Shown: positions 45,259-58,048 of the stretch, piece by piece
Position numbering within the stretch: position 1 is the stretch's first letter
Layout: each line of letters opens with the position of its first letter
Source: Sulfurimonas sp.
GTDB lineage: Bacteria; Campylobacterota; Campylobacteria; Campylobacterales; Sulfurimonadaceae
DNA length: 58,048 bases
Reading direction: 5' to 3'
NCBI GenBank assembly: GCA_026996295.1
Contig: JALWLL010000031.1
Location: forward strand, 1-58,048
Position numbers and translations under genes: made by a program
Notes under the pieces: generated by a model
What the model was told of the DNA's origin: nothing
Database searches by the model: none
What the model saw: the letters and a program-made list of their open reading frames with translations, nothing else

Positions 45259-45444
45259 AGAGCGCTTTGGGAGTGTTAAAAAACTCTCCCTAGTATGAAT
45301 AAGTGTAGCCGGATCAGTTTTGGCAAATGGGAGGATCATCTACCCTTCAATACTCTTTATAAGAAAGTATATCATAGCATAACCAGACACAAAGCTGTCA
45401 ATATAAAATCGTACACTTCTATCATAAAATATGAGGAGCGTACG

Positions 45445-47562
45445 ATGAGACGAAGAAGAAAAGCAAATTACAATTCAGATGAGCTGTATGATAAAACGCA
45501 GTACGCAGAAAAAGAGCTAATCGACAAGATATCTCTTTGGGCATTGCGTATCATCTTTAAACTAAATGGTTCTAAAGAGTTTTTAGACGCTGACAATCGC
45601 TTTGACAGAGACTCTTTGGCCTATTTTCTAGGGATTGGTGAGTATATTGATATGGATCGTGATGCCTTCAAACGCAATGAAGTGTTGGCTATTTTAAAAA
45701 GAGATCTCACTAAACTTGAAAAGAGAAAACGTTTTAGCACTTCAAAAATTCTTGCCAAAAATATCAAACAGCTTTCTAAGTTGATGGATTTAAATACTAT
45801 AGAAGAACAACTAGTAGAATTCTGTGTAATTGTGAATCAGTATGATATTTTAAGAGATGCTATAAATCTACTCGGACATGAACTCAATACTACCCAAGCA
45901 AAAAGAGCACTCTCAGTAATATTGGACATACCAGGCAAAGAACTGGATAATACTTTGAAATCTCATTCCAAACTTATGAAATCTTCTATTGTATCAATCA
46001 ATAAAAACAATACACGCTCTTTGGATGGAAAAATAGAAATAATTACTGAGAGCTTTGCAGATGATATGCTCAACTTGGATGAAGATATCTCTGTAATGAT
46101 TAAAGAGGCAGTACGACCATGCAGTAAAAGCACATTGACACTGCAGGACTATGAACACATCACAAAAGATTTAGATATTTTAGTTCCTTACCTCTCGAAT
46201 GCGATTAACAGTAAACAAGCAGGAGTCAATATTCTTCTCTACGGTTTACCCGGAACCGGAAAAACAGAACTTGCTAAAACGATCTCCGAGGTCTTACAAA
46301 CAGAGCTGTTTGAGATAAGTTATGCAGATGAAGATGATGAGGCGATAGATGGACGCTTTCGATTAAGAGCGTATAAAATGGCACAAGCACTACTCGCCAA
46401 TAAAGATATCATCCTTATGTACGATGAAGCAGAAGATATATTTGAGAGTAACAGCGGTTTTTTTGCTCCAAAGAGACAAGAAAATAAAGCATGGCTTAAT
46501 AGAATACTTGAAACCAACACTATCCCAACTATTTGGATCACAAATAACATCCATAGTATCGACAATGCAATGGTAAGAAGGTTTGATTATGCTATTGAGA
46601 TACCGATTCCAAAAAAATCCAAACGTGCCCAGATTATTAAAAACTATTCAGATAACCTGTTAGATGAGCAAAGTATTAAATTATTGGCTGAAAATGAGAA
46701 TATAGCCCCGGCGCTCATTACTCGAGCAACTAAAGTGATTAGCAGTATAGATGTAAAGGACAGACCAAAAGCTTTTAAACAGGTGCTCAACAATACACTC
46801 AAAGCACAAGGATATGCAGAGATAGAGGAAAAGAGTGCTGAGTCTTCACTTCCCTCTGTGTACAATCCACAATTTATAAATACAATGACTGATCTGGATA
46901 ATCTGGCACAAGGCATCCTTGAACACCAAAACGCGAGACTCTGTCTTTACGGACCGGCAGGAACCGGTAAAAGTGCATATGGCAAGTATATTGCACAAAT
47001 GCTCGATAAACCTTTACTGTTAAAAAAGGGAAGTGACCTTATCAGTATGTGGGTAGGAGGCACTGAAAAGAATATAGCAAACGCATTTGAAGAAGCAAAA
47101 GAGGAGAAAGCTGTACTTGTATTTGATGAAGTGGATAGCTTCTTGGCTGATAGGACCCAAGCTAAACAGAGCTGGGAAGTCACTCAGGTCAATGAGATGC
47201 TGGTACAGATGGAAAACTTCGATGGAATATTTATAGCGACAACGAACCTTATGGATAATCTCGATAGTGCAAGTTTGAGAAGATTTGATCTTAAATTGGA
47301 ATTTTCTTACTTAAAATCACAACAGGCTTGGGAGATGTTTCTCGCTTATGCTAAAGAACTAAACTTGAAAAAACCATCAGCTACTCTTCAAAGAACAGTG
47401 CAAAGTATGAAATATCTTACACCTGGTGACTTTGCAGCAGTTACCCGTCAAAATAGATTCAGACCTATTGCAGATGCCAAAGATCTAGTGCATAGACTTG
47501 AAGATGAGATTGCCATCAAGCAGGTGAGTAGTGGGAGTGTTATGGGGTTTTTGGCTTCATGA
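45445..47562 (+). CDS. Tandem AAA+ ATPase (CDC48-like two-ring protein)
   Basis: A 705-residue protein. The first 250 residues are helical and match nothing I know. The D1 AAA module has Walker A GLPGTGKTE near 266, Walker B LMYDEAED near 325 and NAMVRRFD at the second-region end. The D2 module has Walker A GPAGTGKSA near 502, Walker B VFDEVDS near 558, sensor ATTN near 596 and arginine finger LRRFD near 610. Both modules look active. An upstream ATG at 45295 lacks a ribosome site; ATG 45445 has GAGGAG six bases before it. It overlaps the PcfJ-like gene (ATGA), so the two act together, probably as an unfoldase or remodeller. Confidence 0.88.
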   Translation: MRRRRKANYNSDELYDKTQYAEKELIDKISLWALRIIFKLNGSKEFLDADNRFDRDSLAYFLGIGEYIDMDRDAFKRNEVLAILKRDLTKLEKRKRFSTSKILAKNIKQLSKLMDLNTIEEQLVEFCVIVNQYDILRDAINLLGHELNTTQAKRALSVILDIPGKELDNTLKSHSKLMKSSIVSINKNNTRSLDGKIEIITESFADDMLNLDEDISVMIKEAVRPCSKSTLTLQDYEHITKDLDILVPYLSNAINSKQAGVNILLYGLPGTGKTELAKTISEVLQTELFEISYADEDDEAIDGRFRLRAYKMAQALLANKDIILMYDEAEDIFESNSGFFAPKRQENKAWLNRILETNTIPTIWITNNIHSIDNAMVRRFDYAIEIPIPKKSKRAQIIKNYSDNLLDEQSIKLLAENENIAPALITRATKVISSIDVKDRPKAFKQVLNNTLKAQGYAEIEEKSAESSLPSVYNPQFINTMTDLDNLAQGILEHQNARLCLYGPAGTGKSAYGKYIAQMLDKPLLLKKGSDLISMWVGGTEKNIANAFEEAKEEKAVLVFDEVDSFLADRTQAKQSWEVTQVNEMLVQMENFDGIFIATTNLMDNLDSASLRRFDLKLEFSYLKSQQAWEMFLAYAKELNLKKPSATLQRTVQSMKYLTPGDFAAVTRQNRFRPIADAKDLVHRLEDEIAIKQVSSGSVMGFLAS

Positions 47563-48977
47563 ATCAACTTGCATGGAGACTAACTACAGATTTTAACAAA
47601 GAGAAGCATCTCTTTACTGATACACTTACACTGGATTATTTTGTGGAGACTTATGTCTGTAGTTGCGGATACACGAAATTTATACTTAAATATAGTAAAC
47701 AAGAGATCGATTATATGTGTAAAAGATGTGAAAATATGAGGTTTTACAATGCTAATTTTGCATGGAGTAATTTTGCTTATTTTATAGAACAAGAGCTAGA
47801 TACAGAGTTTGAATATGAATATAAAGTAGAATATACTGACAACGTAGTAAGCTCTTTTTATGGGATAGGGATTCCTACAAAAATTGACTTTATATCGCAA
47901 AAAGTGATCTATGATATGAAGGCTGTCTATACAGTCACATTGACTCAAGAGGGTGAGCTAAACAGAGACTATATACTTCAACCACCAAAAAAGGATAAAA
48001 CACAGGTTGAAGAAAATCTTCTTTATCATATCAATAATCTCAATCCATTTGATATACCAAAACATCCAAAAAAGAAGATAACTTTCGATATAGCGGCTTT
48101 TTTTCTTAAAAACAGAGAACTTAAAGAGTTTGCATTTTATTATTGGAGATACATCCCAAAGATGGATCAAAAAGAGTTGTTTGTCAATGATGCACTCATA
48201 CACTTAGCAAACCATCCAAAAGAAAAATCCATCAAAAAAGCTCTTTATCATAACTATACGCGGCAGATGGATCAATATGGTAAATATAATGCGATAGCTA
48301 TAGAAGTTTTTTGCAAGACCATGAACGATACAAATATTATAGTTAAGCTGCTCAATCTAGAATCGATGTTTTTAATAGACAGTGGTTTGAATACTCAGGA
48401 GTTCTACCAATTGATAATTTTTTTAAAGAAATACTACATAGAAAAACAGCTTTTTAAACTCTTTAGCTCTCAAGAGTTTGAAAACAAACCATTTCTTTTT
48501 CGAGATATATTACGCGAATTTATTACAATGCAGGAGAGTATAGAACATTTATTTAAAAAAGTTGCATGCAAAGCTGTTGCACTTCACGATGAGTTTGTTC
48601 GATGTGGAGTTGAAGAAAGATATAAATATATGTTCACAAAAACTCTTTCATATAAAGCCAAAGAGATAAAACCTTGTATAACACTAGGCAGATACAAAGT
48701 AAGCGTTCCTCAAACCGGTATGGAACTTTTTAAATGGGCTGAATCTCTTCATAATTGTATGGCTGGGTATTTTGATGCAATAGATTGTAATGAAACTATA
48801 ATTTATTGTTTTTTTAAAGAGGATGATCTTCAGTTTGCTGTGGAAGTATCTGATGGATATATCAGACAGGCAAGTGGAAAATATAATAGAGAATTACTTA
48901 AAGAGGAGGAAAAGGTACTTGAAAAATGGTTTCAAATTTCATTTAAGAAAATACAAAGGCAAGCAGATGCTGCCTAA
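47559..48977 (+). CDS. Zinc-ribbon protein with PcfJ-like C-terminal domain, copy 1
   Basis: A 472-residue protein coupled to the AAA+ gene by an ATGA overlap. Near residue 33 it has a CSCG knuckle and near 54 a C-x2-C (CKRC), together a likely zinc ribbon. A long helical middle (about 150-330) follows. The C-terminal part (about 340-460) resembles the PcfJ family, with LHNCMAGY near 397 and a following FAVEVSDGYIRQ strand. PcfJ was named on conjugative plasmids; its biochemical role is unclear. The pair with AAA+ suggests an ATPase plus a substrate-binding or effector subunit. Confidence 0.75.
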   Translation: MNQLAWRLTTDFNKEKHLFTDTLTLDYFVETYVCSCGYTKFILKYSKQEIDYMCKRCENMRFYNANFAWSNFAYFIEQELDTEFEYEYKVEYTDNVVSSFYGIGIPTKIDFISQKVIYDMKAVYTVTLTQEGELNRDYILQPPKKDKTQVEENLLYHINNLNPFDIPKHPKKKITFDIAAFFLKNRELKEFAFYYWRYIPKMDQKELFVNDALIHLANHPKEKSIKKALYHNYTRQMDQYGKYNAIAIEVFCKTMNDTNIIVKLLNLESMFLIDSGLNTQEFYQLIIFLKKYYIEKQLFKLFSSQEFENKPFLFRDILREFITMQESIEHLFKKVACKAVALHDEFVRCGVEERYKYMFTKTLSYKAKEIKPCITLGRYKVSVPQTGMELFKWAESLHNCMAGYFDAIDCNETIIYCFFKEDDLQFAVEVSDGYIRQASGKYNRELLKEEEKVLEKWFQISFKKIQRQADAA

Positions 48978-50448
48978 AAATACTAATAAAAACAGATGGA
49001 TATTGTCTGTAAACAATGCTATTACAAATAAGATATCGCACCACTATTTTTGTTGCTGTTCTCATAGATTTGTACTTAACACCAACTTGGATGAACCAGA
49101 AGCACCAGATGTTCTATGTCCTTTGTGTAGCAACACTTATTTTATCAATATTCAAGAGTTCATCTCAAAGGATGGTGTTCGTATCTACAAAGATTTTCGA
49201 TGGGAGATAAAGGAGTCTGTAACAGATGGGAGTTGGCGTGTAACACTTTTTTTTACATTTCCTGAATATATTGAAACAAATGATACAGTTTTCCTTGTAA
49301 AACAGGATCTTTTGACATTAAATCTAAATAAAGATGGAACAACAGATCTAAAAATAGAATATCATTCAGACATAATTTTGAAATATAGCTTGTTTAAAAA
49401 TGATAAAGTGATACCACTAAAGAGAATTATGCTCGATGATGCCAAAGAACAATTATGTAGTTATATTCTCAATAACATAACGAAAGAGATACCATGGATA
49501 GATAGGTCAAAAGTACAAATGTTGTCCGTTGATAAGCAGTTGCAATATTTTCGTTTCTTTTTACAACATAGGTATTTCCAAGAGCATCGATTCTTCTTTT
49601 GGAAAATGGAAGGTTTAACTTTTGATTTTTTCAGATCAGTTTCACAAATGGAAGCACTGCACATCGTAGGGAATACGCGAAAAGAGAAGATAGTGAAAAG
49701 AGCTCTTTATCAAGGTTATGAAGATGCAATGCAAAAGACGGAATATTATTATCCATACAGTGATTATGTTTTTTCTAAAACGATTGACAATATTGATCTG
49801 CTTGTCCAACTATATGCTTTACACCCTGTTATCAAACAAAATATTTTTACACCTGAGACAGTATCAGCAGCTATTGTCTTAATAAATTTTCTAAAAAATC
49901 ACTATACCGAGAAACAGATAATTAATCTTTTTACCAAGGATATAGAAGATACTAATGGATACAAAGAAAAATTACTCTTATTTAGAGACACATTGAATAT
50001 GATAGATGCACACAATGCCATTGGTTCACTTGAAAAACATTTTATGAAGGTTAAACTTACTGCAAAAAAGCTTCATGATGAAATGGTCAGGGTTTATCAT
50101 ATCGTTTCATATGAACTTGATGCAAAAGAGGAGTTTGAATATGATCCAATTTACCTTTCAGCTTGTCAAGAGTATCAAGGTTTGGAGTTTAGACTGCCAT
50201 TGACAATGAAGGAATTGAGCTTGTGGGCAAAGACACTTCATAATTGTATGTTTGGTTATGCAAAAAGAATTCATCAGCATAACTCTATTATTTATGGCAT
50301 CTTTGAAAATGATGAGCTTATGTACGCTATAGAATTAAATGGTTTTAGGGTTGTACAGGCTAAGGGAGTTTCTAACTCCATGGTTCCCGACAAGGTTGTA
50401 AATGTTATTAATAGTTGGAGAAGTAACATTTTAGAATTCTTTGGGTAA
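48967..50448 (+). CDS. Zinc-ribbon protein with PcfJ-like C-terminal domain, copy 2
   Basis: A 493-residue paralogue of the preceding protein with the same layout: cysteine knuckles CCCS near 28 and CPLC near 52, a long helical middle and a PcfJ-like C-terminus with LHNCMFGY near 425. The frame is open further upstream; ATG 48967 is chosen because it gives the paralogue's length and overlaps the previous stop by 11 bases, though TTG 48919 with GGAGGA before it is an alternative. The last 525 bases are part of a direct repeat with 53090-53614. Two tandem diverged copies suggest distinct targets. Confidence 0.72.
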   Translation: MLPKNTNKNRWILSVNNAITNKISHHYFCCCSHRFVLNTNLDEPEAPDVLCPLCSNTYFINIQEFISKDGVRIYKDFRWEIKESVTDGSWRVTLFFTFPEYIETNDTVFLVKQDLLTLNLNKDGTTDLKIEYHSDIILKYSLFKNDKVIPLKRIMLDDAKEQLCSYILNNITKEIPWIDRSKVQMLSVDKQLQYFRFFLQHRYFQEHRFFFWKMEGLTFDFFRSVSQMEALHIVGNTRKEKIVKRALYQGYEDAMQKTEYYYPYSDYVFSKTIDNIDLLVQLYALHPVIKQNIFTPETVSAAIVLINFLKNHYTEKQIINLFTKDIEDTNGYKEKLLLFRDTLNMIDAHNAIGSLEKHFMKVKLTAKKLHDEMVRVYHIVSYELDAKEEFEYDPIYLSACQEYQGLEFRLPLTMKELSLWAKTLHNCMFGYAKRIHQHNSIIYGIFENDELMYAIELNGFRVVQAKGVSNSMVPDKVVNVINSWRSNILEFFG

Positions 50449-50515
50449 AATTTAGGTTAATATGAGTAGTTAGGAATAGATTTGAGTGATCATAAAATGA
50501 TATTAAAAACATAAT
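49924..50515. repeat. Left copy of the 590-bp direct repeat flanking an inserted module
   Basis: This segment matches 53090-53682 at a constant offset of 3166 bases over almost its whole length, with scattered substitutions, mostly at silent sites in the PcfJ part. It contains the last 175 codons of PcfJ copy 2, the 33-bp gap and the first codons of the GHKL-type gene. Near its right end it lacks one base relative to the other copy, which shifts the frame of the GHKL relic. Confidence 0.9.
50482..50515 (+). pseudogene. Frameshifted 5' relic of the GHKL/DUF3883 gene
   Basis: The start region of the 1383-aa gene (ribosome site TTAGGA, TTG AGT GAT) reappears here. A one-base deletion after the fourth codon shifts the frame into TAA within 11 codons. 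Matching sequence ends near 50515. Confidence 0.85.
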
Positions 50516-50545
50516 AATTATATCTTTTCTGCTTTGTCAATAAAA

Positions 50546-50574
50546 TTGTGAACAATTAAAAGTTTTATTATAAA
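50546..50574 (+). promoter_or_regulatory. Promoter of the 160-aa gene
   Basis: TTGTGA (50546-50551) and TATAAA (50569-50574) are 17 bases apart, 40 bp before the GTG start of the next gene. Confidence 0.55.
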
Positions 50575-50575
50575 G

Positions 50576-50594
50576 TGTTAGATATTATCTAACA
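50576..50594. promoter_or_regulatory. 19-bp perfect palindrome overlapping the transcription start, candidate operator
   Basis: TGTTAGATA (50576-50584), a central T, and TATCTAACA (50586-50594) form a perfect inverted repeat. It lies directly downstream of the -10 box, over the expected transcription start, which is a classic repressor position. No DNA-binding protein is obvious in the module. Confidence 0.55.
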
Positions 50595-50613
50595 AATAAC
50601 TGAGGAGATGTAA

Positions 50614-51096
50614 GTGGAGATCAAAGGTTTTAGAGAAGTTACATTTATAGAAGATAGTCAAATTGTTATACATGTACCAGAAGAGTTGTGTGAAAATGAA
50701 GAGTGTGAAAGTATTGAAGTGGAAGTAACAGTTGTTTTTAAAGATAATTCAAAGAGTAAAGAAATACTTGAAGAAAAAAAATCTTGGAATAATAGAATTT
50801 ATATTTTAAATAAACTTGATTCAGCATTTAAAGATGATAGAAAAGAACTTGAAAAAATTGGTTTTAAAAGGATACATAAAAATAAAGATGATGAAGTTTG
50901 GGAGATACCAAATGATTATGATTTTGATTGGCAAACAGAGAAATTTGTAAAAAGGATTCCGGAAAATATTTGGAGAGGTTGGGAATATAGTCTTCGATTT
51001 ATTGATGATAACTATGAAAGAGATTCAAAAGAGTTAAAGGAACTTGGATTTAAAGTTACATATACAGGTAAGCATGGTGAGACTTGGTCTCGATAA
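50614..51096 (+). CDS. Unknown 160-residue protein with two internal repeats
   Basis: A 160-residue acidic soluble protein. An N-terminal beta-type part (about 1-60) is followed by two related repeats of about 37-40 residues (about 65-103 and 122-160). Each has a NKLDSAFKDDRKELEKIGFK-like helix, then a strand and a W near the end (DEVWEI and GETWSR). I recognise no family. GTG 50614 follows GAGGAG by six bases. It is the first gene of the inserted module and has its own promoter and palindrome. Confidence 0.75.
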   Translation: MEIKGFREVTFIEDSQIVIHVPEELCENEECESIEVEVTVVFKDNSKSKEILEEKKSWNNRIYILNKLDSAFKDDRKELEKIGFKRIHKNKDDEVWEIPNDYDFDWQTEKFVKRIPENIWRGWEYSLRFIDDNYERDSKELKELGFKVTYTGKHGETWSR

Positions 51097-51159
51097 AGTC
51101 ATATTAATATAAAAACCAGATAAAAGACTAAGGTAAAAATGTACCAAGAAATACTATAA

Positions 51160-51345
51160 TGAACCCCAAAAATTGAACCAGCAAATTTCAGATTTTAATT
51201 TCAAAATGTTAAAATAGAAATAGAAAATATAGGGATTCAAAAATGAGTAAAAAGAGAAAGAGTTATAGTGCGGATTTGCAGCTGCCCCTTGAGGGTACAA
51301 AGCAAAATTGGTTCTTGAAGTTATACTATTTGAAGGTATAATATT
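51160..51345 (+). mobile_element. Remnant of an IS3-family insertion sequence (left end and orfA start)
   Basis: TGAACCCCAAAAATTG at 51160 looks like an IS3-family terminal repeat. At 51243 an ATG opens MSKKRKSYSAD, the typical start of an IS3 OrfA transposase. The expected continuation KAKLVLEV is present but in another frame, after about 22 extra bases. The rest of the element and its right end are missing. No functional transposase remains. Confidence 0.72.
51315..51342 (+). promoter_or_regulatory. Candidate promoter for the LRR gene at the edge of the IS remnant
   Basis: TTGAAG (51315-51320) and a perfect TATAAT (51337-51342) with a 16-base spacer lie 33 bp before the LRR start. The -35 lies inside the former orfA, so the insertion may have created the promoter. 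Confidence 0.5.
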
Positions 51346-51374
51346 AAACAACAAAATATTTAAAGAGAACTATT

Positions 51375-52679
51375 ATGAAGAAACTAGCAAAAATCGATAC
51401 TCACTGGACTGAAAAAATATACATGTGGGCTGATATTAATGATATACCAAAAACAACTTTACCACGGAATAAAGAGTTGCTTATAAATTTACAAGAGTTA
51501 CATTTAGATATAAGTCACTTAAAAGGATGGCCTAATGAGATTGGGAACTTAATTCATTTAAAAACTCTAAGCCTACATGGTAAATTAGAAAATATACCAA
51601 AAGAAATTGGTAAGCTTACTGCTTTAGAACATTTAAGTATATACCATAATAATCAACTGGAATATTTACCACATGAGATAGGAAAACTTACAAATTTAAA
51701 AACGTTAGATTTAAGAGGAAATAGTTTGAAAGAACTGCCAAAAGAAATTGGCAATTTAACTCAATTAAAATCTCTTGTTCTAACTAACAACGAATTAGCA
51801 AGATTACCAATAGAAATTGCCAATCTTGTTAATTTAGAAGAGTTGCGATTAGAGAATAATCATCAATTAAGAAGATTACCTAAAGAGATTGGCAATCTTT
51901 CAAGCTTAAAAAAACTAAATTTAGCCAATTGTTTTCTTATAGAACTACCAAAAGAGATATACAAGCTTACTAGTTTAACATCTTTAGATTTAACAGGTCA
52001 TATGATAAAAGAATTTCCAGACAGTAGCAATAAACTTACAAATTTAAAATACCTATGTTTAACTCTCAACACATTAAGTAAACTACCTATGGGGATAACA
52101 AATCCGTCTAATTTAAGAAATCTTTATTTAGATATTGATAACACAAAAGATATTCCAGAAGAGATATACAATTTCAAAAATCTAACAACATTGACTTTAT
52201 CTATGGAGGAATTGAATTCATTATCACCAAGAATAAGTAATCTTTCTAATTTAAGAAGATTGACTCTCTATGCAACTCAATTAAAAGAGTTACCCAAAGA
52301 GATAGGTAAACTAAGTAAGTTAGAAGAGTTAAAGTTAAGTGATAGTCAAATAAAGGAGTTACCTAAAGAGATAGGTATGCTGACTAAGTTAAAAAAGTTA
52401 AATCTAAGTAGAAGTAAACTAAAAAAGTTACCTAAAGAGATAGGAGAACTAACTAATCTAGAAGATTTGCAATTATCTGGTAATCAATTAAAGGAGTTAC
52501 CTAAAGAGATTGGTAAGCTTACTAAGTTAAAAAAGCTAAATTTAAATAATAATCAATTAAATGAGCTACCTAAAGAAGCAATAAATCTTAATCTTGATAT
52601 AAAAGCTTTTGCTACACTTAAGCCTTATTTATGGTATATAATTCAAAGATTTATTTTTAAAAATTTCATTAAAAGATAA
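51375..52679 (+). CDS. Leucine-rich-repeat protein
   Basis: A 434-residue protein made almost wholly of about 16 leucine-rich repeats of 23 residues (pattern LKELPKEIGKLTKLKKLNLS), from about residue 38 to 405. There is no signal peptide or membrane segment, so it is probably cytoplasmic. A 30-residue tail rich in aromatic and basic residues closes it. LRR solenoids bind proteins. The repeats are very similar at the DNA level in the second half, which favours expansion by slippage or recombination. It follows an IS remnant; an effector or recognition role is only a guess. Confidence 0.9.
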   Translation: MKKLAKIDTHWTEKIYMWADINDIPKTTLPRNKELLINLQELHLDISHLKGWPNEIGNLIHLKTLSLHGKLENIPKEIGKLTALEHLSIYHNNQLEYLPHEIGKLTNLKTLDLRGNSLKELPKEIGNLTQLKSLVLTNNELARLPIEIANLVNLEELRLENNHQLRRLPKEIGNLSSLKKLNLANCFLIELPKEIYKLTSLTSLDLTGHMIKEFPDSSNKLTNLKYLCLTLNTLSKLPMGITNPSNLRNLYLDIDNTKDIPEEIYNFKNLTTLTLSMEELNSLSPRISNLSNLRRLTLYATQLKELPKEIGKLSKLEELKLSDSQIKELPKEIGMLTKLKKLNLSRSKLKKLPKEIGELTNLEDLQLSGNQLKELPKEIGKLTKLKKLNLNNNQLNELPKEAINLNLDIKAFATLKPYLWYIIQRFIFKNFIKR

Positions 52680-52692
52680 TATAGGGAAAAGC

Positions 52693-53151
52693 ATGAATCA
52701 ACAATATAAAAACTTGCTAACACAAACTTTAAAAACTATTGAAAATAATGCTGGACTAATTAATAATGTAAGAACTTTTTTAGAAAAAAAGATATCGAAT
52801 GTACAGTTACGAGAGTTTGATAAACTTGTTAAACAAGTAGCTTATGACATTTTAGTTCTTAAACGTAGAGAGTATGACAATGATACACTAGAACCTTGTG
52901 CTAATCCCGCTCACTATCCTGAAAAAAATTCTCCTTTTGATACAAGAGAACATATTGATTGTTTAAGTGCATGGACGCAAAATTATGAATTTCTTGAATT
53001 AGAAGGAATAAAATTTAAATATCTAAAAAACTTAGATGCTACCTATGTCATTATGGGTAAAGACTCAACTGGTAAGGTAACACATTGGAAATCTTTTTAC
53101 CAAGGATATAGAAGATACCAATGGATACAAAGAAAAATTACTCTTATTTAG
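52693..53151 (+). CDS. Unknown protein with a 3' end replaced at the repeat junction
   Basis: A 152-residue frame with a helical N-terminal half and cysteines near 83 and 104. No domain recognised. The last 18 residues (after THWKS) are read out of frame from the right copy of the 590-bp repeat, where the true coding frame belongs to the PcfJ gene. So the native C-terminus was probably lost when the module was joined at 53090. Whether the shortened protein works is unknown. Confidence 0.6.
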   Translation: MNQQYKNLLTQTLKTIENNAGLINNVRTFLEKKISNVQLREFDKLVKQVAYDILVLKRREYDNDTLEPCANPAHYPEKNSPFDTREHIDCLSAWTQNYEFLELEGIKFKYLKNLDATYVIMGKDSTGKVTHWKSFYQGYRRYQWIQRKITLI

Positions 53152-53614
53152 AGATACTTTGAATATGTTGGATGTACACAATGCCATTGGTTCACTTGAA
53201 AAACATTTTATGAAGGTAAAACTTACTGCAAAAAAGCTTCATGATGAAATGGTCAGGGTTTATCATATCGTTTCATATGAACTTGATGCGAAAGAGAAGT
53301 TTGAATATGATCCAATCTATCTTTCAGCTTGTCAAGAGTATGAAGATTTGGAGTTTAGACTGCCATTGACAGTGAAGGAATTGAGCTTGTGGGCAAAGCT
53401 CCTTTACAATTGTATGTTTGGTTATACAAAAAGAATTCATCAGCATAAGTCTATGATCTATGGTGTATTTAAAGATGATGAGTTTTTGTCGGCGATAGAG
53501 TTGAATGGTTTTAGTGTTGTTCAATCGAAGGGAGTTTCAAACTCAGAAGTTTATAAAAAAGCCACGAGTGTTATTAATGGTTGTAAAAGTAACATTTTAG
53601 AATCTATTAGATAG
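53090..53614 (+). pseudogene. Truncated PcfJ-like gene (C-terminal part only)
   Basis: The frame NLFTKDIEDTNGYKEKLLLF continues without a stop to 53614 and matches the last 175 codons of PcfJ copy 2. The zinc ribbon and middle region are absent. The only start codons are internal (TTG 53159, ATG 53165). The conserved LHNC motif has become LYNC here, consistent with lost constraint. A 150-aa fragment could still be made. Confidence 0.82.
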
Positions 53615-53682
53615 AATGTAAGTCAATATGAATAGTTAGGAATAGATTTGAGTGATTATGAAAATGATATTAGAAATATAAT
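53090..53682. repeat. Right copy of the 590-bp direct repeat flanking an inserted module
   Basis: Counterpart of 49924-50515. It holds the 3' third of a PcfJ-like gene, the 33-bp gap with ribosome site, and the intact start of the GHKL/DUF3883 gene. The left edge at 53090 is sharp and falls inside the 152-aa frame. The right edge fades near 53682, where the left copy diverges. Confidence 0.9.
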
Positions 53683-56600
53683 TAGCAACTTTCAAAAATA
53701 CAGTATAAAGCTTATTACTGAAAGTATTGAAGAAGGAAGAAATATTGCACAGTCTCAAGCAGGGACAGAAGCAGAATCAAGTAAAGATTACAGTGGTAGA
53801 GTTGTTTTTGAGTTTTTTCAAAATGCTGTTGATAGAGCGAATGAAAAAATCTGGATGGAACTTACAAAAGAGAGTTTTATTATATCTAATGATGGTCAAG
53901 AGTTTAGTATTTATGAAGATACAAAAGATGGTAAAAAAAGTGATTTTTTTGCTCTAAATACAATTCATGACGGAAGTAAAACAGCAGGGGAATCAATAGG
54001 TAATAAAGGTGTTGGTTTTAAGTCTTGTTGGAATGTCAGTAAACATGTAATTATAGAATCTTTAAAACAAGATGAAAAACCTTGGGGTTTTGAATTGTTT
54101 AATCCTATATCAACTGATAATTTTGAAGATGAAGATATCAAAAAAGCTATAAAAAAAGCTGGTGATAAAGTACCATCTTTTTATTTTCCAAAATATGTAG
54201 ATAGTCCTCATGAGAGCTTTAAAGATGGAGCAGTTACTAAAATAACAATTAAACTAGAAAACAAAAGTGCTTATGAAGAGATAAAAAAAGAGTTAGAAGA
54301 GTTTAGAAAAGCAAAGTTTTTCTTTCTCAATGAATTAAAGGGTAAAAAAGATAAAAATTATAAAATCTCTATCTCGATAGATGAAAAAACTGATATATTC
54401 TCTTCTCAAGATAGTAAATGGAACATAATAACTTTAAAAGAAAAAAACGATACTGATTATCAAGCATTAAAAGAAGAGCGTTCAAAAGAGAGTTATAGTA
54501 ATATCCCAAATGAACCGAATATAGCGATTGCTTTTCCTCCTGAAAATGAAAAGATTGATTCAAAATTTTATACATATCTACCCACTAAAATAAACTGTGG
54601 ATTTAAAGTGTTAATACATGCAGATTTTGCCCTTGATAATGCTCGTGTATCAATTCCTGAGAATAATTACAATAATAAAATACTAAAGATTGCTGCAAAG
54701 CTATTTGTAGATGAGTTGATGAAAAATACTGATTTGCATACAAGAGAAGATTTTGCTAAATTTTTAATGCCTTATAATAGAGATGATATATTTGCCAAAA
54801 TGGTATGGAATGAGTTGACAATTAATAAGCATAAGTTAACTGAGGTTTTACGAAAAGTATATACAAAAGATAGAAACTTGCCAAAATCATCTTATGAAAT
54901 GATTTTTAGTGTGATTAAAAAATGGGTAAGAGAACATAATTATGGTGAAGAATGGGCAAAATACTTTAATAGTGTTTATTTGGAAACAATACAATATTTT
55001 TGTGATGACAATATCTTTATTGTGTATATTGATAAAACATATAAAAGTTTTTTACCTAAAAAAGAGAAAGACGAAGATTCTCAAAAGAGTAAACTTTTTT
55101 ATATTGATGAAGAAAATGATGAAAGTAAATATGATTTCAATCTCTTGAAGCAACTATCAAATATTACTTTATCTAGTATGACAGATTTAAAACACGAATT
55201 GTATGTTAAAAATGGACTTGTTAAAGAAAATAGAAACATTGAAATATATAGGACATTAGCAATAGAGATGGAACAGAATCAAAGTTTATCCGAAAATGAT
55301 AAATTAAATATTTTAAAATTTATCTCAATAAATGCAACTACTGATTTTAATTATAAATTTTTTCTATCAGATAAAAATAAACGAAGATCAGAAACTGGTG
55401 TTCAATTATCAAGAATTCATTTGCCAACAAAACAAAAAGGATGGCAGCCAGCAAAAAGATGTTTTATCAATATTGATTCAAAAGTTACTAATTACTTTAA
55501 AGGTTTTTTTGAAATTGATTATGAAAAAATTAAAGAAATTTTTCCTATAAAAGAACATTTGAGATTTTTTGGTGTTTGGGATACATTACCAATTACAGAA
55601 AAGTTTGAATTACCTTGGGATGATAATATTGTACCAAAAATTCAAGATAAAAGTTTTAAAGAACTTTTAAATCGAAGTATTATCATCTGGGATAAAATAA
55701 AAGAAATTTCTAAACCTGAAATTATAAATATTTTTCAAAAAATAAAGAATCAAGAAATTTTTTATGATGAAATAAATAAACAGTTTTGTAAACCTAATGA
55801 AGTTTTCTTATTTAATGATGAGCGAAAAAGAGATATAATTTCTCAAGCTTATAAAAATGACGGATTTAAAGAACTTTATGATCATCTAGAAATTTATACA
55901 ATAGAAGATACAAAAAATAAAGACAAATTATCTAATCAACTACTAAAATTAAAAAATCATCAATATGTGATTGATAAAACTCATAAAACACTTTATAAAC
56001 AGCTTGTATTAAGTTTATCAAAATGTGAAGACTATAAAAAACTCAACTCAATACCTTTGTTAATTGATGATAAATATTGTCAAGGTGATACCAATATATG
56101 GTTTGCCGATAGAAATTCAAAAAGATATATGCATTATTTTAATGCATTGAATTTTATCTTATTTGATATTGAGACTAATAAAGAATTTGTTAAACATTTT
56201 GGCATTCAACTTTTTAATCCTAACTTTGAACTTAAACCTGATAGTGCAAAAGAAACAATTCAAAGTGAATTAAAACAGATAATTGAAAATCAGTATTTAG
56301 CACATATGTTTTGTTTAGCTGATGAGATTATGCACATTAATAGATTCACTAAGGAAGAAGCTATAACAAGATGGAATAACTTAAGAATAGGTTATTCCAA
56401 AGATGTTTGGTTAGAGATGAGCTTAGATCGCAGCAATGAAATAGTCACTGTAGGAAAAGGGATAGCAAATAGTGATGTATTATTTAAACCATTGAGTGAT
56501 AGTCAAAGACAACAAAATAAAGAAAACATTGGTGATATTATTCATGATTTAGAAGGTAACCCTAATAATCTAATACAAAATTCAAAATTTTATAAATTTG

Positions 56601-57799
56601 GTTATGTAATAGCTGATGGTGTTTTTAGGGATATGGCACTTGGGTCTGTGTTTTCAGATTATTTAAAAACAGAAGACAAAAATGAGTTTTTAAGAGAAAG
56701 GGGAATTGTTGATTCAGACATAAAAGAAATGGAGAATTTTATAAAACAATCAACTTTAGATAAAGAAGAAGTTGAGACTATTATTAAGACATTGAATAAG
56801 GCTTTTTTTAACAGCAATATAGCAAATACAAGCAATTGGTTTTTACTAAATACATACATTGAATGTAACAGTACATATGAAAAACTCATAGGATTATTTA
56901 AGAATTCAGAAAAACTACAAAATGTAATTAAACAACTAAATCCTATAAACTATAATAAGTCTAAGGTATATGCATTAAAAGATGAAATCAAATTAAAATA
57001 TTATATTTTACAAAGAAAGCAACTTACAGATGAAGAGTTTGATAAAGTTTTAGAGAATTCCAGTAATGAATTAATGCACTATAATTTTGACATCAATATG
57101 ATTGTTCAACGTTTTAGTATTGATAAAGAAATTAGTGAAGATGAGATAGAAATAGCAAAAATAGAAATAGCAAATGATATTACTTTTGTTGCTTCAGATT
57201 TTGCAAAGAGTAATGATCAAAAAGTAGTTGCTTCAAATCAGTTTGAACAAAATAAAAAAGTTTCAACTATCAAAAAGAGCGAAACTACAAGATTGCAAGA
57301 GAGTGAGAAACAGCAAAAAAGAGGATTTGCATATGAACGAATATTTGCTTATAGACAGGCAGCTAAAATAATAAAAAATCAAAACTTATTTGATATTTTT
57401 GTTACACGTTATAAAGATATGAATTATTTAAATCAAGAGATCGATTTCTCAAATAAGAGTTTAGAAAACATTACAGATATTATACATGTTTCTAAATCAA
57501 CTGGTGATGGATTAGGTTTTGATGTTTTAGAAATTGATGACAATGAAACAATTAATAAGATTGAAATAAAATCTTCTAGAGGAAATATGAATATACATTT
57601 TTCTAATAATGAAGTTGAACAAATATTTAAAATGAGGGAGGATCCAGCTTGGAAGTTATACCATTTTGTTGATGGAAAAATATTTGATCGGACTTCGGTA
57701 ATTAAAGAAGAAGTAAAAAAATTAATTGAAAACCAAAAAAATATTAAAACTAGTATTATTGCAGAAAGTTGGATGATTACATTTGCAAAGGAAAATTAA
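53648..57799 (+). CDS. Large GHKL-type ATPase with C-terminal DUF3883 nuclease-like domain
   Basis: A 1383-residue protein. The N-terminus is a GHKL (Hsp90/sacsin-like) ATPase with the asparagine motif EFFQNAVDRA near 56, SNDGQEF near 81 and the lid motif IGNKGVGFKS near 118. A long middle region has no domain I can name. The C-terminus (about 1215-1383) resembles DUF3883 of the PD-(D/E)xK nuclease fold: GLGFDVLE near 1289 and IEIKSS near 1305 give the catalytic D and ExK. The TTG at 53648 has AGGA six bases before it. The gene is visibly more A+T-rich than the core genes. It is followed, with no gap, by a Cas4-like gene. Likely a nucleic-acid-directed defence protein. Confidence 0.82.
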   Translation: MSDYENDIRNIISNFQKYSIKLITESIEEGRNIAQSQAGTEAESSKDYSGRVVFEFFQNAVDRANEKIWMELTKESFIISNDGQEFSIYEDTKDGKKSDFFALNTIHDGSKTAGESIGNKGVGFKSCWNVSKHVIIESLKQDEKPWGFELFNPISTDNFEDEDIKKAIKKAGDKVPSFYFPKYVDSPHESFKDGAVTKITIKLENKSAYEEIKKELEEFRKAKFFFLNELKGKKDKNYKISISIDEKTDIFSSQDSKWNIITLKEKNDTDYQALKEERSKESYSNIPNEPNIAIAFPPENEKIDSKFYTYLPTKINCGFKVLIHADFALDNARVSIPENNYNNKILKIAAKLFVDELMKNTDLHTREDFAKFLMPYNRDDIFAKMVWNELTINKHKLTEVLRKVYTKDRNLPKSSYEMIFSVIKKWVREHNYGEEWAKYFNSVYLETIQYFCDDNIFIVYIDKTYKSFLPKKEKDEDSQKSKLFYIDEENDESKYDFNLLKQLSNITLSSMTDLKHELYVKNGLVKENRNIEIYRTLAIEMEQNQSLSENDKLNILKFISINATTDFNYKFFLSDKNKRRSETGVQLSRIHLPTKQKGWQPAKRCFINIDSKVTNYFKGFFEIDYEKIKEIFPIKEHLRFFGVWDTLPITEKFELPWDDNIVPKIQDKSFKELLNRSIIIWDKIKEISKPEIINIFQKIKNQEIFYDEINKQFCKPNEVFLFNDERKRDIISQAYKNDGFKELYDHLEIYTIEDTKNKDKLSNQLLKLKNHQYVIDKTHKTLYKQLVLSLSKCEDYKKLNSIPLLIDDKYCQGDTNIWFADRNSKRYMHYFNALNFILFDIETNKEFVKHFGIQLFNPNFELKPDSAKETIQSELKQIIENQYLAHMFCLADEIMHINRFTKEEAITRWNNLRIGYSKDVWLEMSLDRSNEIVTVGKGIANSDVLFKPLSDSQRQQNKENIGDIIHDLEGNPNNLIQNSKFYKFGYVIADGVFRDMALGSVFSDYLKTEDKNEFLRERGIVDSDIKEMENFIKQSTLDKEEVETIIKTLNKAFFNSNIANTSNWFLLNTYIECNSTYEKLIGLFKNSEKLQNVIKQLNPINYNKSKVYALKDEIKLKYYILQRKQLTDEEFDKVLENSSNELMHYNFDINMIVQRFSIDKEISEDEIEIAKIEIANDITFVASDFAKSNDQKVVASNQFEQNKKVSTIKKSETTRLQESEKQQKRGFAYERIFAYRQAAKIIKNQNLFDIFVTRYKDMNYLNQEIDFSNKSLENITDIIHVSKSTGDGLGFDVLEIDDNETINKIEIKSSRGNMNIHFSNNEVEQIFKMREDPAWKLYHFVDGKIFDRTSVIKEEVKKLIENQKNIKTSIIAESWMITFAKEN

Positions 57800-58048
57800 A
57801 TGACTCTCTCTAAATCCCAATACATCCGAGGATTACAATGCCACAAATCTCTCTGGCTAGACAAAAATAGACCAGAAGTAAGAATCACTTCTGATTCTGC
57901 TCAGGAATCACTTTTTAATAGAGGATACCAAGTGGGAGATTTAGCAAAAGCGCTGTTTCCTAACGGAGTAGAGATAGAGTTTGATGGAAGCAATTTCAAT
58001 GACATGACTCAAAATACAAAAAAGCTTATTGCAAATGATATTGAAGTT
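57800..58048 (+). CDS. DUF2779 / Cas4-like RecB-type nuclease, 3' end beyond the window
   Basis: The ATG at 57800 directly follows the GHKL gene stop, with AAGGA seven bases before it, and the frame is open to the edge (83 codons). The start LSKSQYIRGLQCHKSLWL is the signature of the DUF2779 family, whose members carry a Cas4/RecB-like PD-(D/E)xK domain with a cysteine-bound cluster. Coupled translation with the GHKL/DUF3883 gene suggests one functional unit. The catalytic part lies outside the window. Confidence 0.75.
   Translation, partial: MTLSKSQYIRGLQCHKSLWLDKNRPEVRITSDSAQESLFNRGYQVGDLAKALFPNGVEIEFDGSNFNDMTQNTKKLIANDIEV

What the first reader, a model, noticed from the sequence alone, without database searches (positions are those of the whole stretch)
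53648..58048. GHKL ATPase/DUF3883 nuclease coupled to a DUF2779 Cas4-like nuclease
An Hsp90/sacsin-like ATPase fused to a PD-(D/E)xK-like end, followed at zero distance by a RecB/Cas4-type gene, looks like a two-component nucleic-acid-targeting system. Composition differs from the core genes and the neighbourhood is mobile. Ancestrally it sat directly after a PcfJ-like gene, so it may belong with the AAA+/PcfJ genes as one five-gene island.
Basis: partly seen in the sequence, partly recalled or inferred. Interest (0 to 1): 0.7.

Follow-up and report, generated by a model that had tools for sequence, protein, structure and literature searches.

The report
Hsp90-like ATPase–nuclease in defence island
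The gene encodes a large Hsp90/gyrase-type ATPase with a DNA-cutting domain at its end, a relative of the known anti-phage protein Tiamat, sitting in a shuffled bacterial defence island where the neighbouring Cas4-like nuclease gene turns up beside many unrelated defence genes rather than being its dedicated partner.

Summary
ORF 53648-57799 (1383 aa) has an Hsp90/GyrB/MutL-type ATPase plus transducer at its N-terminus and a DUF3883 (NOV_C) PD-(D/E)xK-type domain at its C-terminus. The catalytic D1292, E1306 and K1308 are invariant in relatives. The next ORF starts at zero distance and is the N-terminus of a DUF2779 protein (73.5% identity), cut off by the contig end. ATPase plus DUF3883 is the normal layout of a TmtA (Tiamat)-like family found from haloarchaea to Bacteroidota, so it is not a new fusion. 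The 'two-component system' is not supported: none of 104 DUF2779 loci holds a TmtA relative, and one of 30 TmtA-like loci holds a DUF2779, 3 kb away. In this phylum DUF2779 overlaps or abuts many unrelated defence genes. The 'one island' idea fares better. A diverged 570-bp repeat carries a ghost of the TmtA start, showing that TmtA once followed a PcfJ gene directly. AAA+ precedes TmtA in another Campylobacterales MAG and on a Thiodictyon plasmid, and AAA+ and DUF2779 are linked in several lineages. Best reading: a Tiamat-like, ATP-gated defence nuclease in a modular AAA+ ... DUF2779 island whose middle genes are exchanged. No experimental evidence exists.

The parts
53648..57799 (+). TmtA (Tiamat)-like GHKL ATPase with C-terminal DUF3883, 1383 aa
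   Evidence: homologue L059 starts at the same place
53729..54847 (+). Hsp90/GyrB/MutL-type ATPase plus transducer (residues 28-400); motifs E55..Q58-N59-A60-x-D62, N81-D-G83, G118-N-K-G-V-G-F124
   Evidence: invariant or nearly invariant columns in A3; fold match Z 15.1 over 278 residues
57281..57796 (+). C-terminal DUF3883 / PD-(D/E)xK-type domain (residues 1212-1383); D1292, E1306, K1308
   Evidence: Pfam NOV_C at residues 1269-1339; D, E, K invariant in 16 sequences; model and fold search
57800..58048 (+). DUF2779 protein (Cas4-like N-terminus), 83 aa, cut by the contig end
   Evidence: 73.5% identity to Aliarcobacter butzleri DUF2779 proteins; contig length 58048
45295..47562 (+). Tandem AAA+ ATPase, first gene of the island
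   Evidence: Pfam AAA, two stretches, 1.5e-44; orthologues precede TmtA in L059 and L010
47559..48977 (+). PcfJ-like gene 1
   Evidence: Pfam PF14284, 1e-11
48823..50448 (+). PcfJ-like gene 2
   Evidence: Pfam PF14284, 2.9e-10; 28% identical to gene 1
49924..50493 (+). Left copy of the direct repeat: 3' end of PcfJ2 plus a ghost of the TmtA start at 50482
   Evidence: blastn 570 bp at 87.5%; junction alignment
53090..53659 (+). Right copy of the direct repeat: truncated PcfJ (ORF 53159-53614) plus the start of TmtA
50494..53089 (+). Inserted segment carrying ORF160, an LRR protein and ORF152, which now separates PcfJ2 from TmtA
   Evidence: flanked by the repeat copies; LRR domains

Best explanation
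A Tiamat (TmtA)-like defence protein. Shown: a GHKL/Hsp90-type ATPase with transducer at the N-terminus, a PD-(D/E)xK-type DUF3883 domain with intact catalytic residues at the C-terminus, coding constraint, and placement in a modular island with AAA+, PcfJ and DUF2779. Inferred: ATP binding dimerises and closes the N-terminal clamp on invading DNA or on a phage-dependent signal, and this licenses cleavage by the C-terminal nuclease. DUF2779 (Cas4-like plus RNase H-type exonuclease) is probably co-transcribed and may trim or degrade the cut ends, but it is an interchangeable accessory of many defence genes rather than a dedicated partner. The AAA+ gene and DUF2779 tend to frame a stretch in which effector genes are exchanged.
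For: Domain hits. Fold matches for both ends. All full-length relatives aligned carry the same C-terminal signature GxxxE..GFD..ExK..S-x-N/S-E. Relatives lie beside type I restriction, RecBCD, KAP and AAA+ genes. AAA+ precedes TmtA in L059 (70%/54% identity) and in Thiodictyon L010 (33%/25%). G099 has AAA+ (73%), an FtsZ-like gene, a 138-aa gene, two GmrSD genes, then DUF2779 (67%); G141 has AAA+, PcfJ, split ORFs with PDDEXK_4-like sequence, then DUF2779. AAA+ directly followed by DUF2779 then WYL on Rhodoferax and Diaphorobacter plasmids. DUF2779 promiscuity: 30 of 69 copies lie within 14 bp of an upstream gene, of many unrelated families. GHKL plus PD-(D/E)xK nuclease has an experimentally shown precedent in VcSduA (PMC12137116).
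Against: TmtA models match only the N-terminal third (residues 7-539 at most), so Tiamat membership rests on the ATPase half. The DUF3883 Pfam score only just passes its cut-off. The middle (about 460-1200) has no assigned domain. GmrSD genes also cluster with AAA+ and DUF2779, so the linkage may be general defence-island clustering. No activity data exist for this protein.
Confidence: 0.62

Rival explanations
1. A dedicated two-component system: the GHKL-DUF3883 protein cuts or opens the target and DUF2779 is its obligate second nuclease.
For: Zero-distance, same-strand genes; DUF2779 carries Cas4-like and DUF2779/RNase H_2 domains in the 73.5% identical relative.
Against: No TmtA relative in 104 DUF2779 loci; DUF2779 in only 1 of 30 TmtA-like loci and 3 kb away; DUF2779 equally tightly joined to unrelated genes; G+C of the two genes differs, 25.9% against 36.5%, though the DUF2779 figure rests on 249 bp.
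Confidence: 0.13
2. One co-acting machine of five genes: AAA+, PcfJ, PcfJ, TmtA, DUF2779.
For: AAA+ before TmtA in L059 and Thiodictyon; ancestral PcfJ2-TmtA junction; AAA+ - PcfJ - (nuclease) - DUF2779 in G141; 5 of 9 close DUF2779 relatives have AAA+ in the held DNA against 6 of 78 others (Fisher p 0.001; part of the loci were fetched through AAA+ hits).
Against: AAA+ occurs in 41 of 397 genomes while only 5 have any TmtA-like match; PcfJ is replaced by FtsZ-like genes in L059 and L171; AAA+ and DUF2779 adjoin with nothing between in several loci.
Confidence: 0.17
3. A decaying or non-defence island gene (for example a chaperone or repair factor) carried by chance.
For: Rare in the phylum; neighbouring PcfJ copy truncated and an insertion present.
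Against: Full-length open frame with catalytic residues kept and coding constraint; restriction and RecBCD genes beside its relatives.
Confidence: 0.08

Closest known systems
Tiamat (TmtA), single-gene anti-phage system with GHKL-type ATPase (name from PADLOC-DB; system description from my own knowledge)
   Same: N-terminal ATPase region matches several TmtA models (best 4e-47); relatives L010, L061 and L063 match the same model better
   Different: Match covers only the N-terminal third; this protein is 1383 aa against 1302-1782 positions in the models; here it lies in a multi-gene island
VcSduA (Shedu type I-D, paraMORC3; PMC12137116)
   Same: GHKL ATPase fused to a C-terminal PD-(D/E)xK nuclease; proposed ATPase-controlled nuclease
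   Different: Its nuclease domain is DUF4263; here it is DUF3883
DUF2779 / COG2251-like RecB-Cas4 plus RNase H-like proteins (PMC3985635)
   Same: Next gene is the N-terminus of this family
   Different: Only 83 aa are in the assembly; catalytic parts cannot be read
DUF3883 restriction proteins (SNF2-DUF3883 in PMC3710099)
   Same: DUF3883 called a novel restriction-endonuclease domain in that paper
   Different: Motor there is an SNF2 helicase; here it is a GHKL ATPase

Membership tests
Tiamat (TmtA) | N-terminal GHKL/Hsp90-type ATPase region matching TmtA models | tested here: met
   PDLC03971 158.5 bits, residues 7-355
Tiamat (TmtA) | Match along the whole TmtA profile | tested here: inconclusive
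   Only profile positions up to 500 of 1302-1782 aligned; the relatives L061 and L010 behave similarly, and L063 matches in 4 stretches, 531 bits
Tiamat (TmtA) | Anti-phage activity as a single gene | not testable with these tools
   needs experiment
DUF3883 / NOV_C (PF13020) | Pfam gathering score reached | tested here: met
   22.6 against 22.1 bits, residues 1269-1339
DUF3883 / NOV_C (PF13020) | PD-(D/E)xK-type core with D, E, K | tested here: met
   D1292, E1306, K1308 invariant; top fold matches are nucleases of this fold, Z 5-6.9
Sacsin/Hsp90-type ATPase domain (NF047352) | Curated score and ATP-binding motifs | tested here: met
   51.7 against 50 bits; motifs conserved; fold Z 15
DUF2779 (PF11074) | The DUF2779 domain itself (about residues 290-415) | not testable with these tools
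   contig ends after 83 aa; rest not in the assembly
DUF2779 (PF11074) | N-terminal region homologous to DUF2779 proteins | tested here: met
   73.5% identity over 83/83 residues; the relative carries PF11074 at 8e-43
Shedu type I-D (VcSduA) | C-terminal DUF4263 nuclease domain | tested here: not met
   Pfam scan of the protein gave NOV_C and no DUF4263
IetAS (for the AAA+ gene) | IetA equivalog score | tested here: not met
   131 bits against a cut-off of 510

The most novel reading that the evidence does not exclude
AAA+ and DUF2779 form the constant frame of a modular defence cassette, with an exchangeable effector slot between them that can hold TmtA, a GmrSD pair or a PDDEXK_4 nuclease (plus PcfJ or FtsZ-like helpers). 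The frame proteins would serve different effectors, AAA+ as activator or remodeler and DUF2779 as a shared end-processing nuclease.
Probability: 0.25. Interest if true: 0.65.

Novelty: new member of a known kind. Interest (0 to 1): 0.4.

Why it matters
It places a divergent Tiamat-like nuclease in a defined genomic setting and assigns its C-terminus to the PD-(D/E)xK fold with named catalytic residues, which makes the mechanism testable. It also shows that DUF2779, a very common but little-studied Cas4/exonuclease-like protein (89 of 397 Campylobacterota genomes), is a promiscuous, tightly coupled neighbour of many defence genes, so a general auxiliary role is worth testing.

Tried and rejected
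Close-peptide scans with the TmtA protein in genome contigs and viral contigs found nothing; an alignment of the N-terminus was needed. No relatives in phage records or viral contigs; DUF2779 found none in viral contigs. The rest of the DUF2779 gene was sought in the assembly by family and by protein and not found. No solved-structure relative by sequence. A dedicated TmtA-DUF2779 pair was rejected as a recurrent unit. A GmrSD control search showed that other defence genes also cluster with AAA+ and DUF2779, so linkage alone is not proof of joint function. IetAS and Shedu memberships were rejected. Papers naming DUF3883 or DUF2779 are few and none that I read treats this pairing. An empty-site test with the left flank was begun and not pursued, because the right flank is missing. 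No Rfam family or tRNA near the island.

Full report
Observation. The window is a whole contig of 58,048 bases of a 2.1-Mb Campylobacterota genome. ORF 53648-57799 encodes 1383 aa and is followed, with TAA directly before ATG, by an ORF that runs off the contig end after 83 codons. The large protein matches the sacsin-type ATP-binding domain, PADLOC TmtA models and Pfam NOV_C = DUF3883 just above its cut-off. The 83-aa fragment is 73.5% identical to DUF2779 proteins of Aliarcobacter butzleri plasmids, one of which scores 8e-43 to PF11074 and weakly to Cas4. The rest of that gene is not elsewhere in the assembly. G+C is 25.9% for the ATPase gene, 28% for 50449-53647, 34% for AAA+/PcfJ and 37.4% for the rest of the contig.

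Anatomy. An AlphaFold model of residues 1-560 gives an Hsp90/GyrB/MutL-type ATPase and transducer (Z about 15 over about 280 residues). A model of residues 984-1383 gives a confident last 170 residues. No Foldseek E-value is below 0.001, but the best matches are nearly all PD-(D/E)xK nucleases: Hjc, RecU, PvuII, I-Ssp6803I, NhoI-type and SPARDA nucleases, Z up to 6.9. Z values of 5-7 are modest. The call rests on the consistency of the matches together with the invariant G, E, D, E, K columns in 16 sequences, D1292 and E1306-x-K1308 here. Against the closest relative, L059, codon positions diverge 0.31/0.22/0.47, as in a constrained gene.

Family. A scan with an N-terminal alignment found 22 loci from Campylobacterales, Bacteroidota, Gamma-, Beta- and Alphaproteobacteria, Actinomycetota and haloarchaea; nine plasmid records added more. 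All long members aligned have the same C-terminal signature, so the ATPase-DUF3883 layout is the family norm. Their neighbours are often restriction or recombination genes: HsdR, RecBCD, KAP, DUF262, AAA+. Within the phylum it is rare: 5 of 397 genomes with any match, the window's own genome included and no other match close.

DUF2779 is promiscuous. It occurs in 89 of 397 genomes. Of 69 copies examined, 30 lie within 14 bp of, or overlap, an upstream same-strand gene. Those partners include PDDEXK_4, NACHT, PLD, GmrSD, AAA_13, SMC-like, HNH, helicase, KAP, RhuM and AAA+ proteins. None of 104 DUF2779 loci holds a TmtA relative, and one of 30 TmtA-like loci holds a DUF2779, 3 kb upstream. The first codons of DUF2779 genes often contain stop codons in the other frames (TGA at positions 2-4 in 49 of 75), which explains recurrent overlaps of 4 and 14 bases with unrelated genes. 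The zero-distance coupling in the window is therefore what DUF2779 does in general, not evidence of a dedicated pair.

The island. Upstream lie a tandem AAA+ gene and two PcfJ-like genes. The 3' end of PcfJ2 is repeated at 53090-53659 (570 bp, 87.5%), and the first copy carries, 33 bp after the PcfJ2 stop, a decayed TmtA start (TTGAGTGATCAT against TTGAGTGATTAT). Both copies thus preserve a PcfJ2-TmtA junction, and the segment with the LRR gene was placed between them later, perhaps by single-crossover integration of DNA carrying the same junction (the route is inference). In the MAG contig L059 the order is AAA+ (70% identical), an FtsZ_C-bearing ORF, a 132-aa ORF, then TmtA (54%). In Thiodictyon AAA+ (33%) is directly followed by TmtA. 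In G099 the order is AAA+ (73%), an FtsZ-like fragment, a relative of the 132-aa ORF (60%), two GmrSD genes, DUF2779 (67%). In G141 it is AAA+, PcfJ, split ORFs with PDDEXK_4-like sequence (assigned by eye), DUF2779. On Rhodoferax and Diaphorobacter plasmids AAA+, DUF2779 and WYL are consecutive. By the coordinates, 20 of 24 genomes with both AAA+ and DUF2779 have them within 20 kb, nine of these being one genus. GmrSD genes cluster with both too, so this may be general defence-island clustering.

Mechanism. Most likely an ATP-gated nuclease: the GHKL dimer clamps on a target and licenses the DUF3883 domain, as proposed for VcSduA, where GHKL is fused to DUF4263 (PMC12137116). DUF3883 has been called a novel restriction-endonuclease domain (PMC3710099), and DUF2779 a presumed 3'-5' exonuclease with a DUF83 (PD-(D/E)xK-like) domain (PMC3985635). 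Clamp closure, target and nuclease activity are inference. Tiamat's own description is from my knowledge; no held paper that I found describes its domains.

Verdict. The two-component reading is not supported; the island reading is partly supported, as a modular and shuffled island. A new member of a known kind, of moderate interest.

Noticed in passing
L171:8941-9714, L059:1980-2699, L235:5066-6079, L061:16229-17215: FtsZ/tubulin-like genes recur in the same AAA+/DUF2779/TmtA islands, in L059 and L171 followed by a conserved 132-138-aa partner; possibly a tubulin-like defence helper.
   Followed up: partly
57800-57814 and 5' ends of DUF2779 genes in L014-L140: DUF2779 starts often carry stops in the other two frames (TGA at 2-4, TAA at 12-14), so unrelated upstream ORFs end at overlaps of 4 or 14 bases.
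   Followed up: partly
45295-45444: The AAA+ ORF probably starts near 45445 (MRRRRKAN), since several homologues align only from about residue 51.
   Followed up: no
49924-50493 and 53090-53659: Identity between the repeat copies falls from 98% at the 5' end to about 70-80% at the 3' end, suggesting later gene conversion or two origins.
   Followed up: partly
51375-52679: LRR protein of 434 aa inside the inserted segment; LRR homologues also lie near AAA+/DUF2779 in L173 and near AAA+ in L210.
   Followed up: no
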